From Calothrix anomala FACHB-343 (GTDB lineage: Bacteria > Cyanobacteriota > Cyanobacteriia > Cyanobacteriales > Nostocaceae): a stretch of DNA of 64,000 bases. Location: NCBI RefSeq assembly GCF_014696435.1, contig NZ_JACJQG010000032.1, positions 1 through 64,000 on the forward strand, read 5' to 3'. A model generated the notes under the pieces. That model did no database searches and was not told the origin of the DNA. It saw only the letters and a list, made by a program, of their open reading frames with translations. The translations under genes were made by a program, and so were the position numbers. Below are positions 16,155 through 18,575 of this stretch, piece after piece (position 1 is the first letter of the stretch; every line of letters starts with the position of its first letter).

Positions 16155-16637
16155 TTATCTATCATTCTGAGTTTTTGCTTGTTGTGCAGCATTTCTCACT
16201 TGTTCAATATCCAAATTCAAAGCTTGGGTAATTTGTTCAATTGTCAAACCTAACATTAGCATTCCAGAGATAGCATTTAAATTCGCTTCTGCAATACCTC
16301 TCTGTCTACCTTCCTCAATACCTTCCTGCTTTGCTTCTTGATAAACTATTGTCTGCTTCAACTCACTTAAACCAAACATACTCTCTATCTCCTCTCGACT
16401 CATAGTAGGAAACTTATAAACTAAGATTGTCTCTATCAATTCTAGTAACTGTCGCTGTTTTGATCCGGTGTTAATTTCCTGTTGGGTTCTGTTGATTAAT
16501 TCCCTAGCACTTACAATTGCTGTATCTTTATCTTCCAGAACTAATTTAATAGTAGCAATACCAACTGGTAATGATGTTATTTCACCTAATTCATCCAGAT
16601 AGATCCGACTGATACGCTGACTGGTGAATAATTCACC
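16155..16637 (-). pseudogene. DUF2887 protein, C-terminal fragment (interrupted by the iscB element)
   Basis: The 160 codons encode the C-terminal half of a DUF2887 (Rpn/PD-(D/E)XK-like) protein, from GELFTSQRISRIYLDELGEI through the VYKFPTMSREEIESMFGLSE block to QNDR. The missing N-terminal half lies at 18237-18575 on the other side of the iscB insertion. Joining the two removes a segment of about 1599 bp and restores one 273-codon frame, close to the family's usual length. A downstream in-frame ATG inside the element could still start a 170-residue product (16667), but it would lack the nuclease core. Confidence 0.85.
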
Positions 16638-16719
16638 AAAGTCCTCGCGCCGTGGAAGCCCCTGCATTCATGCATGGGGGTAAGGCTCGTTTGCGTATTT
16701 ATTCGCCGTCAAGATTGCT

Positions 16720-18003
16720 TCAAAAAGCATAACTATATCCATCCTTTTTATGAATCGCTGAACAATATTTATGGCTAATTCCTGAAATTCTTCCGGTCTT
16801 GGAAGCGATATCAAAACTACCTGTGGCACGACACAAAACACGTCCAACATATTCGCCAACTTTTTTGCCACTGGTAACAACCGCTTTAATAATGTCTCCA
16901 GTTTGAAAACCAAAATGGATTTGTTTATTTGTGCGGTGACGACTCGGAAAACCGAATTTATCAGTACCGCACATTTGGCGATTACCGTGACCATTAGCTG
17001 TGATCAACAATGGTTTGATACCTTTGATATTTAATGTTGGTGTTGATTTGCCAACACAAGCAGCATCAATCCAATGAGTCTTGATTAATTGCTGCCTAGT
17101 TCTGTTGAACTTTGTTAAACCACCAGAGCCACATTCAACGGGTAAACCCGTAGCTTTCAAAACCTCTAAAAGCTTGTATCTAGTAGCATTAACTGCTGCT
17201 GCATCAGCCAATGCTTTCTTAGCTTGTGCCAAGATTTTCTGTAACGTAGTAGGGTCTTTTTTGAGGAAATCCTTAATATCTTTAGTCCCTTTTTTGATGT
17301 TGCATTTTTCGCAACTTAATGTAAGGTTTGTGATTGAATTAGACCCACCTTTAGAACATGGGTGAATGTGTTCAATCTGTAAAGGTACGTCTTTGACAGC
17401 ACAATAGGCGCATTGCCGATTCCACTTTTCAAGTAGATATTCTCTGGTTTCATATCCAGCTAATGTACCTTGCTGATATTCCTTGCCTTCGATTTCAGGA
17501 TTACGCATTAATTGCATATCAAACTTGACTAATTCGGTACTAATCGCTGTGATTGGTGCAAATTTACGCAATCTGTTTACCCATGTTTCAACATTGTGAA
17601 CCCGACTCATCAGGCTAGGTGCTAACCATCCTGGTGGTCTAGTTCTATTCAGAAATCTTGGCTTTCTGTAACGGGTTTTTCGATTTCTTCTGCCACGTCT
17701 TAATTGCCTTCTGGAAATCAAAGCGTCTCTAATCGCAAAACCTCTATGCTTTAATTCAGCAGCAAAAACAACTTCGCCAGTTGCATCGTTAACTAATGCT
17801 ATACCTGTGGTTTTAGCGCCAGGGTCAAGCTTTAATCGCAGTGGTGCTACGGGTACATCTGGACAAGATTCTTTAAGAATAAGTGTGAATGGAAAGCGGC
17901 GATAAATGGCTGCTTTTTTGCTTCTTAATAATTGTCTTGCTTGTGCTGAATGTATTGGATTTAGTGGTCTTTTGTTCGTATCAATTACAAAAACTTTGCA
18001 CAT
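16720..18003 (-). CDS. iscB: IscB-type RNA-guided HNH-RuvC nuclease
   Basis: The 427-residue protein has the full IscB order: an N-terminal PLMP-like segment (KRPLNPIHSAQARQLL, residues 11-26), RuvC-I (LKLDPGAKTTGIAL, D60), an Arg-rich bridge helix (SRRQLRRGRRNRKTRYRK, ~98-115), RuvC-II (AISTELVKF, E157), an HNH module (CAYC, then IEHIHP with H212/H214, N226 and CEKC zinc ligands, ~198-240) and RuvC-III (KTHWIDAACVG, H310/D313). All expected catalytic residues are present, so it looks active. IscB proteins use an omega-RNA encoded just upstream to cut DNA and are relatives of the ancestor of Cas9. The start at 18003 is set by AAGGAGG 7 nt upstream; a further ATG 36 nt upstream lacks this. It is the only protein gene of the insertion. 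Confidence 0.93.
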   Translation of the reverse strand: MCKVFVIDTNKRPLNPIHSAQARQLLRSKKAAIYRRFPFTLILKESCPDVPVAPLRLKLDPGAKTTGIALVNDATGEVVFAAELKHRGFAIRDALISRRQLRRGRRNRKTRYRKPRFLNRTRPPGWLAPSLMSRVHNVETWVNRLRKFAPITAISTELVKFDMQLMRNPEIEGKEYQQGTLAGYETREYLLEKWNRQCAYCAVKDVPLQIEHIHPCSKGGSNSITNLTLSCEKCNIKKGTKDIKDFLKKDPTTLQKILAQAKKALADAAAVNATRYKLLEVLKATGLPVECGSGGLTKFNRTRQQLIKTHWIDAACVGKSTPTLNIKGIKPLLITANGHGNRQMCGTDKFGFPSRHRTNKQIHFGFQTGDIIKAVVTSGKKVGEYVGRVLCRATGSFDIASKTGRISGISHKYCSAIHKKDGYSYAF

Positions 18004-18236
18004 AAAGTGCCTCCTTTCGGGTAATTTTAGCTTCGCCAATGTTAGTGGTCTGTACTATCCAAATTGCACTTCCTTAACCCTTATACAGATGTTTAACAAT
18101 TTGGTTCTAGCGCAGGGGACTAGCTACGCATCCCCTGGTAGGTCTTAAACTCTTGCCACTAAAGTAGTCAGTTAAGACTTAGGCTGGTCAGATGGGCTTT
18201 TTCAAGCCCCGCCCTAAAGGGCTGGGGTGTCTGACT
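18004..18236 (-). ncRNA. Candidate IscB omega-RNA
   Basis: This non-coding segment lies directly upstream of iscB, where IscB omega-RNAs are encoded. Reading the minus strand, it shows nested pairing: GTCAGA with TCTGAC around an inner CCCAGCCCTTTAGGGCGGGG hairpin, then GTCTTAA with TTAAGAC, then GGGGATGCGTAGCTAGTCCCC. In known systems the guide is the flank just 5' of the element, which here would be DUF2887 sequence ending ATATCAATAATTAC (18250-18237). The ends and processing are inferred. Confidence 0.75.
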
Positions 18237-18575
18237 GTAATTATTGATATCTGATATATCTAGACTTCGCGTTGGATAAATGACTACTCCCCGCCAAGAA
18301 TTTTTCGGTTGGTTTTGACGTAAGTATAGAAAAATCTCCGAAACTAGGCGCGAATAAATTTCTGCGTCAGGTTGAAATTGAACTTCCACAAAGTAAATCG
18401 GATTCTGTTCTCCTTGAATTGGAAGAAAAACACCATCAATCCGAAATGCAGTCTGCTTAATTTCCACAGAGGAAAATTGATAAGCCTTTGCATTTTCGGG
18501 AGGGTTTCCAATTAATTCAAAAAAAATTTCTGGTAGTTCTTGAAAAAGGCGATAAAAGATGCTGTCAGTTTTCAC
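18237..18575 (-). pseudogene. DUF2887 protein, N-terminal fragment (interrupted by the iscB element)
   Basis: The 113 codons from MKTDSIFYRLFQELPEIFFE to DISDINNY form the N-terminal half of a DUF2887 protein, including the PD-(D/E)XK-like core (AFRIDGVFLP and YFVEVQFQ with E-x-Q). The frame then reads into the inserted element and stops after about 22 foreign codons. The gene was ordinary before insertion. DUF2887/Rpn-like proteins are common in Nostocales, often multicopy and possibly recombination-related, so loss would likely be tolerated. The C-terminal half is at 16155-16637. Confidence 0.88.

What the first reader, a model, noticed from the sequence alone, without database searches (positions are those of the whole stretch)
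16155..18575. IscB element caught inside a DUF2887 gene, with a readable empty site
Two halves of one DUF2887 protein flank an insertion carrying a catalytically complete iscB. The left flank ends in TTAC, the IS608-type target, exactly at a codon boundary. Removing about 1599 bp (18236-16638) restores one 273-codon frame (NNY then GELFTSQRI). This gives a rare, natural pairing of an IscB with its donor site and implies recent insertion, since neither half has decayed. No tnpA is present, so the copy depends on trans-acting transposase or on IscB-driven retention.
Basis: partly seen in the sequence, partly recalled or inferred. Interest (0 to 1): 0.78.

Follow-up and report, generated by a model that had tools for sequence, protein, structure and literature searches.

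The report
IscB transposon splitting a cyanobacterial gene
A small mobile element that carries an RNA-guided DNA cutter has landed inside a bacterial gene, and closely related bacteria still have the unbroken gene, which shows exactly where the element sits and what its guide would be expected to recognise; it is a clear example of a known kind of element.

Summary
Confirmed, with corrections. A 1599-bp element (16637-18235, minus strand) splits a DUF2887/Rpn-family gene. It carries a HEARO/omega-RNA and an intact 427-aa IscB. The empty allele exists in Calothrix brevissima NIES-22 and Tolypothrix sp. FACHB-123; four further relatives have an unbroken gene. Removing 1599 bp restores 273 codons.

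TTAC as target is not supported: among 71 HEARO elements it is flush with the left end in none and one base away in 3. The recurring flank is at the other end: RTGA follows the right end in 4 of 4 empty/filled pairs and, within 1 bp, in 19 of 21 well-defined right ends. That suits an IscB target motif: the empty site is guide+GTGA (predicted target), the filled site guide+GTCA (predicted non-target).

No tnpA was found in the element or in 71 HEARO loci. This is the one IscB over the curated cut-off in a genome with seven HEARO RNAs over cut-off; two iscB-less ones are also absent from the sister. Best reading: an IscB element moved by transposase in trans, with IscB promoting retention. A known kind.

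The parts
16637..18235 (-). The inserted IscB/HEARO element, 1599 bp, no target-site duplication; boundaries may slide by up to 2 bp because of a GT microhomology
   Evidence: Comparison with the empty allele in G001 and Tolypothrix sp. FACHB-123
18021..18235 (-). HEARO RNA (omega-RNA scaffold)
   Evidence: RF02033, 146.9 bits, positions 1-211 of 211
18187..18235 (-). Left-end hairpin (GTCAGA...TCTGAC), starting with the GTCA found at the left end of 68 of 71 elements
   Evidence: Folds; GTCA count
16720..18003 (-). iscB, 427 aa from ATG, stop included; RuvC residues D60, E157, H310, D313 and HNH residue H212
   Evidence: PF14239 and HNH; NF040563 guided_IscB 451 bits; catalytic columns invariant in 17 of 17
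16659..16680 (-). Right-end hairpin, 22 nt from the element end
   Evidence: Read from the sequence; partial stem in the folds
18236..18251 (-). Predicted 16-nt guide, taken from the DUF2887 gene immediately left of the omega-RNA
   Evidence: Inferred from IscB biochemistry (PMC9640706 passages); identical in both sisters' empty alleles
16633..16636 (-). GTGA directly right of the element: predicted target-adjacent motif (TCAC on the opposite strand as predicted transposase target)
   Evidence: RTGA in 4 of 4 empty/filled pairs and 19 of 21 well-defined right ends
18236..18575 (-). 5' part of the split DUF2887 (Rpn-family) gene; its reading frame runs on into the element to a stop at 18168
   Evidence: PF11103 positions 1-115; ORF
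16155..16636 (-). 3' part of the split DUF2887 gene
   Evidence: PF11103 positions 110-200; same frame after removal of 1599 bp

Best explanation
This is an IscB (OMEGA) element of IS200/IS605 type that inserted, without target duplication, immediately 5' of a GTGA inside a DUF2887/Rpn-family gene. No transposase was found in it, so a Y1 transposase elsewhere in the cell most likely moved it (inferred). That transposase most likely works on the strand opposite to iscB and reads TCAY, the complement of RTGA, as its target (inferred). Once inserted, the omega-RNA takes about 16 nt of the left flank as its guide (inferred from other IscBs). The empty allele reads guide + GTGA and should be cut by the IscB RNP; the filled allele reads guide + GTCA and should be spared. 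Cutting the excised donor site, or an empty sister chromosome or incoming allele, would be repaired from the filled copy, so IscB would promote retention and allelic spread. Shown here: the element, its ends, the empty alleles, the identical guide stretch, the RTGA flank, the intact nuclease and RNA, and no tnpA hit. Inferred: cleavage, RTGA as TAM, trans-mobilisation and repair.
For: Empty alleles in two sisters and single-frame homologues in G005, G007, G032 and G017. RTGA at the right end in 4 of 4 empty/filled pairs, two of them without any boundary ambiguity, and within 1 bp in 19 of 21 well-defined right ends against about 0.7% per position downstream. The left end is GTCA in 68 of 71 elements and NTGA in 0 of 71. 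DtIsrB, a relative of IscB, prefers an NTGA TAM, later TTGA at 60 C (PMC9581776 passages). IscB catalytic residues are intact and iscB shows constraint (dN 0.104, dS 0.797 against the sister's element). No Y1 hit in 71 HEARO loci or 17 iscB loci, in line with PMC9755519 (passages), which found few HEARO nucleases with TnpA. Y1 domains occur at 9 places in this genome, two of them 25-residue fragments.
Against: No activity was measured. No transposase with matching ends was found: the element's ends gave only one 11-base, chance-level match in 7 Y1 loci. Guide length and orientation are taken from other IscBs. TAMs vary among IscBs (GAAG in the OgeuIscB structure; NTAAA for OrufIscB), so RTGA is only a candidate. 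Nine right ends that seeded the profile were placed by me next to RTGA where present, so 19 of 21 is partly circular; over all 44 placed ends only 21 have RTGA within 1 bp. One pair (satellite C53) has a mismatch to the sister inside the 16-nt guide stretch.
Confidence: 0.8

Rival explanations
1. One reading: an IS608-type insertion with TTAC at the iscB-proximal left flank as the transposase target.
For: TTAC lies one base from the left end here and at the same offset in 3 of 71 elements, against 0.26 expected per offset (nominal p 0.002, not corrected for the offsets looked at).
Against: 68 of 71 elements lack TTAC at that offset and none has it flush. RTGA recurs at the other end.
Confidence: 0.05
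2. The element is inert: a stranded copy whose iscB has no present role; the empty sisters simply never received it.
For: One full-length copy in the genome, no tnpA and no cognate transposase identified.
Against: iscB is intact and shows constraint relative to the sister's element. Two iscB-less relatives (C54, C53) are also absent from the sister's sites, so such elements have moved since the split, or were lost in the sister.
Confidence: 0.2
3. The sister alleles are empty because the element excised precisely there, rather than because it inserted in this lineage.
For: TnpA-dependent excision of ISDra2 restores the interrupted gene (PMC2806898 passages), so an excised site can look never-occupied.
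Against: The gene is unbroken in all six relatives read; this would need several excisions.
Confidence: 0.05
4. The two halves are two real neighbouring genes and the split is old.
For: The right half has an in-frame ATG inside the element's right end (16667) and both halves are open.
Against: The halves cover complementary parts of one domain, and the gene is a single frame in the six relatives read.
Confidence: 0.01

Closest known systems
IscB/OMEGA elements of the IS200/IS605 superfamily
   Same: RRXRR/RuvC/HNH nuclease of about 430 aa with an omega-RNA encoded immediately 5' of it
   Different: No tnpA found in the element (also usual for HEARO nucleases, PMC9755519 passages); ends and RTGA flank resolved here by natural empty sites
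HEARO RNA (RF02033)
   Same: Full-length match over the gathering score; ATGA/GTGA next to insertions was, as I recall, already noted in the first description (not held, not read)
   Different: Nothing essential
IsrB nickases (DtIsrB; DsIsrB from Dolichospermum)
   Same: NTGA or NTG target-adjacent motif reported (PMC9581776 passages), compatible with RTGA here
   Different: IsrB lacks the HNH nuclease domain (recalled); this protein has it
ISDra2 and IS608 (TnpA/TnpB elements)
   Same: Insertion without target duplication, subterminal hairpins, a short fixed sequence next to one end
   Different: There the fixed flank is 5' of the left end (TTGAT for ISDra2, PMC2806898 passages; TTAC for IS608, recalled); here it lies to the right of iscB, a mirrored arrangement

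Membership tests
IscB (NF040563, RNA-guided endonuclease) | Match to the curated IscB model | tested here: met
   451 bits, cut-off 175
IscB (NF040563, RNA-guided endonuclease) | RuvC D/E/H/D and HNH H residues present | tested here: met
   D60, E157, H310, D313 and H212, invariant in 17 of 17; roles by alignment to IscB chains and PMC9640706 passages
IscB (NF040563, RNA-guided endonuclease) | Omega-RNA directly 5' of the gene | tested here: met
   HEARO RNA at 18235-18021, iscB ATG at 18003
IscB (NF040563, RNA-guided endonuclease) | RNA-guided cleavage next to a TAM | not testable with these tools
   RTGA is only a candidate TAM
HEARO RNA (RF02033) | Match over the curated gathering score | tested here: met
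   146.9 bits against 83
IS200/IS605 superfamily element | Insertion without target-site duplication | tested here: met
   4 of 4 empty/filled pairs
IS200/IS605 superfamily element | Short fixed sequence next to one end | tested here: met
   RTGA in 4 of 4 pairs and 19 of 21 well-defined right ends; 21 of all 44 placed ends
IS200/IS605 superfamily element | Y1 transposase tnpA in the element | tested here: not met
   No tblastn hit of 7 Y1 proteins in the element or in 71 HEARO loci; so I call it a non-autonomous element of IS200/IS605 type, not a full IS
IS608-type target TTAC at the left end | TTAC flush with the left end across copies | tested here: not met
   0 of 71 flush, 3 of 71 one base away

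The most novel reading that the evidence does not exclude
One resident IscB serves a dispersed set of iscB-less HEARO elements in trans. Each satellite supplies its own guide from its own left flank, and all share a built-in distinction between occupied sites (guide + GTCA) and empty sites (guide + RTGA). The window's iscB would then be the retention nuclease for at least four satellites in this genome (C54, C53, C90, C110).
Probability: 0.35. Interest if true: 0.6.

Novelty: new member of a known kind. Interest (0 to 1): 0.38.

Why it matters
Whether IscB keeps its transposon in the genome could be tested here on natural sites. Closely related strains supply matched filled and empty alleles with the predicted motif in place. 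The predicted 16-nt guide stretch is identical in three of the four pairs; the fourth (C53) has one mismatch. Two pairs involve iscB-less satellites, so retention in cis and in trans can both be asked.

Tried and rejected
TTAC as target: not supported. Homing into DUF2887 paralogues: the guide site is poorly matched and RTGA absent in the four own-genome paralogues that align across it (L001-L004); L008 lacks that part and L005 gave no alignment there. A second DUF2887 gene without its 5' half (C59:91949) looked like another insertion near the same codon; no HEARO or IscB hit lies beside it and it appears simply truncated relative to the sister. Decay of the halves: no stops or frameshifts; dN 0.019, dS 0.097 against the sister; polarised changes 8 synonymous/5 nonsynonymous on this lineage and 3/6 on the sister, so no sign of relaxation but little power. 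Cognate transposase by matching ends: nothing convincing. Right ends by fuzzy pattern: time-out, replaced by a profile search that placed ends in 44 of 71 elements. 21 of these have E < 5e-3; in them RTGA starts within 1 bp of the end in 19; over all 44 it does in 21. In the weaker rest RTGA often starts 2 to 7 bases before the extrapolated end (8 at -7, 6 at -2), which I take for misplaced ends without proof. Rows dropped before the 71: three fetched HEARO loci at contig ends (L110, L116, L141).

Papers: PMC9755519, PMC9640706, PMC9581776, PMC12477157, PMC13180657 and PMC2806898 were seen as passages only; all others as search listings. Altae-Tran 2021, Weinberg 2009, Meers 2023 and Kapitonov 2016 are not held; what I say of such work is recalled.

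Full report
What is there. On the minus strand, DUF2887 model positions 1-115 lie at 18569-18228 and positions 109-200 at 16649-16374; NCBIfam places both halves in the Rpn family TIGR01784. Between them are a full-length HEARO RNA (18235-18021, 146.9 bits) and an iscB of 427 aa (18003-16720; guided_IscB 451 bits). D60, E157, H310, D313 (RuvC) and H212 (HNH) are invariant in 17 of 17 aligned IscBs: the window's and 16 from HEARO loci of relatives whose frame exceeds 380 residues. Roles follow the alignment to IscB chains and PMC9640706 passages.

The empty site. A search of 59 genomes (this one and 58 relatives) found the flanks contiguous in G001. A pattern scan of named genomes matched two records: NZ_AP018207.1, Calothrix brevissima NIES-22, whose length equals that of G001 contig 1, and a contig of Tolypothrix sp. 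FACHB-123; that tool may leave out the window's own genome. Both are empty at the same nucleotide. The empty site reads ...CAATAATTACAGTGAATTATTC...; the window reads ...CAATAATTACA|GTCAGACACC ... GAGGACTTTG|GTGAATTATTC.... The element is 1599 bp with a 2-bp ambiguity. Removing it gives a 273-codon frame; the sister has 277 codons. G005, G007, G032 and G017 also carry one uninterrupted frame, and in each a hit to the window's neighbouring dus gene lies on the same contig within about 2 kb.

Which side is fixed. I oriented 71 HEARO elements by their RNA: 9 from this genome (7 over cut-off, 2 below) and 62 from relatives. Not all matches were taken; choice followed its table, and three loci at contig ends were dropped. 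A few are orthologous insertions rather than independent ones (for example C13 here and G001:C1:5754318). The left end begins GTCA in 68 of 71 and NTGA in 0 of 71. The 20 bases left of it differ in all 71. TTAC ends one base away in 3 of 71 and flush in 0 of 71. A right-end profile placed ends in 44 of 71. In the 21 with E < 5e-3, RTGA starts within 1 bp of the end in 19; over all 44, in 21. Nine ends seeded the profile and were placed by me, and the three G043 copies share a right end, so I do not lean on the binomial value. The independent test is the natural empty sites: the window element, satellite C54 (450 bp), satellite C53 (504 bp) and the sister's own full element (1627 bp, empty in this genome). 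All four have RTGA directly right of the element and no target duplication. For C54 and the sister's element the boundary cannot slide; for the window and C53 it can, by GT.

How it most likely works. DtIsrB prefers NTGA, and TTGA at 60 C (PMC9581776 passages), so RTGA is a natural TAM candidate. In OgeuIscB the guide is 5' of the scaffold, about 16 nt suffice, and mismatches at positions 1-14 from the TAM matter (PMC9640706 passages). The guide would then be the left flank. The empty allele is guide+GTGA and the filled allele guide+GTCA, differing at the third motif base. In G001's empty allele the 31 bases left of the joint are identical to the window's. Left flanks of the C54 and sister-element pairs are identical over the 40 bases compared; the C53 pair has one mismatch at about position 13 from the motif. 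The own-genome DUF2887 paralogues that align across the site do not match it, so any homing would be to the orthologous site. Transposase action on the opposite strand at TCAY is inferred from RTGA and hairpin placement; the comparison with IS608 is recalled.

Master and satellites. In this genome HEARO matches 7 places over cut-off and 2 below (0 of 14 control genomes), while an IscB over the curated cut-off is listed once, in the window (0 of 14 controls over cut-off). There are weaker relatives: a 3' remnant with a stop at C83, a short match at C80, and a 369-residue open frame at C57 with 101 bits, below cut-off, beside a HEARO-like match below cut-off. So this is not the only OMEGA-like gene. 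Four satellites share 74-82% of the window's RNA sequence. Of the 71 loci, 27 have iscB homology within 2 kb and 44 do not; of the 44 with placed ends, the 31 without iscB are 310-610 bp and the 13 with it 1031-1633 bp. Across 59 genomes, 23 of the 26 with HEARO over cut-off also have an IscB match over cut-off, against 4 of the 33 others (tested). I assigned HEARO status from best E-values; the total agrees with the tool's tally. Some of these IscB matches are fragments (G032, G044). The three exceptions (G009, G021, G037) have HEARO without an IscB over cut-off. This fits service in trans, and also shared descent of decaying copies.

Transposase. None of seven Y1 proteins of this genome matched in the 71 HEARO loci or in 17 iscB loci by tblastn. 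A divergent Y1, or one beyond the fetched span, would be missed. The Y1 search gave 9 places, all over cut-off, two of them 25-residue fragments.

Age. Flanks are 95-96% identical to the sister. No stops or frameshifts lie in either half and no relaxation is detectable, with low power. The insertion is specific to this lineage among the six relatives read.

Verdict. A well-resolved example of a known kind of element. Literature searches covered open-licence papers only, and I saw no report of this element in their listings; that is no evidence that none exists. On checking I lowered the main confidence from 0.82 to 0.80 because of the C53 mismatch and the 21-of-44 count.

Noticed in passing
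G000:C54:69407, C53:136534, C90:33627, C110:35864 (L058, L060, L059, L061): iscB-less HEARO satellites with full-length RNA scaffolds; C54 and C53 are absent from the matching sites of the sister.
   Followed up: partly
G001:C1:4102773-4104405 (L056): The sister has its own full IscB element (1627 bp) directly before an ATGA; the site is empty in the window's genome at C106:7017/7018.
   Followed up: yes
G000:C57:214501-215287 (L075, L088): A 369-residue frame weakly matching the IscB model (101 bits, below cut-off) beside a HEARO-like match below cut-off; possibly an IsrB-like pair.
   Followed up: no
G000:C59:91949-92227 (L008, L192): A second DUF2887 gene lacking its 5' half, cut near the same codon as the window's junction, but without an IscB element beside it.
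   Followed up: partly
G000:C83:76873-77390 (L010, L064): 3' remnant of a second iscB with a stop codon, near a contig end.
   Followed up: no
left flanks of the 71 HEARO elements: Weak preference for T at -1 (34 of 71) and C at -2 (27 of 71) next to the left end; unexplained.
   Followed up: no
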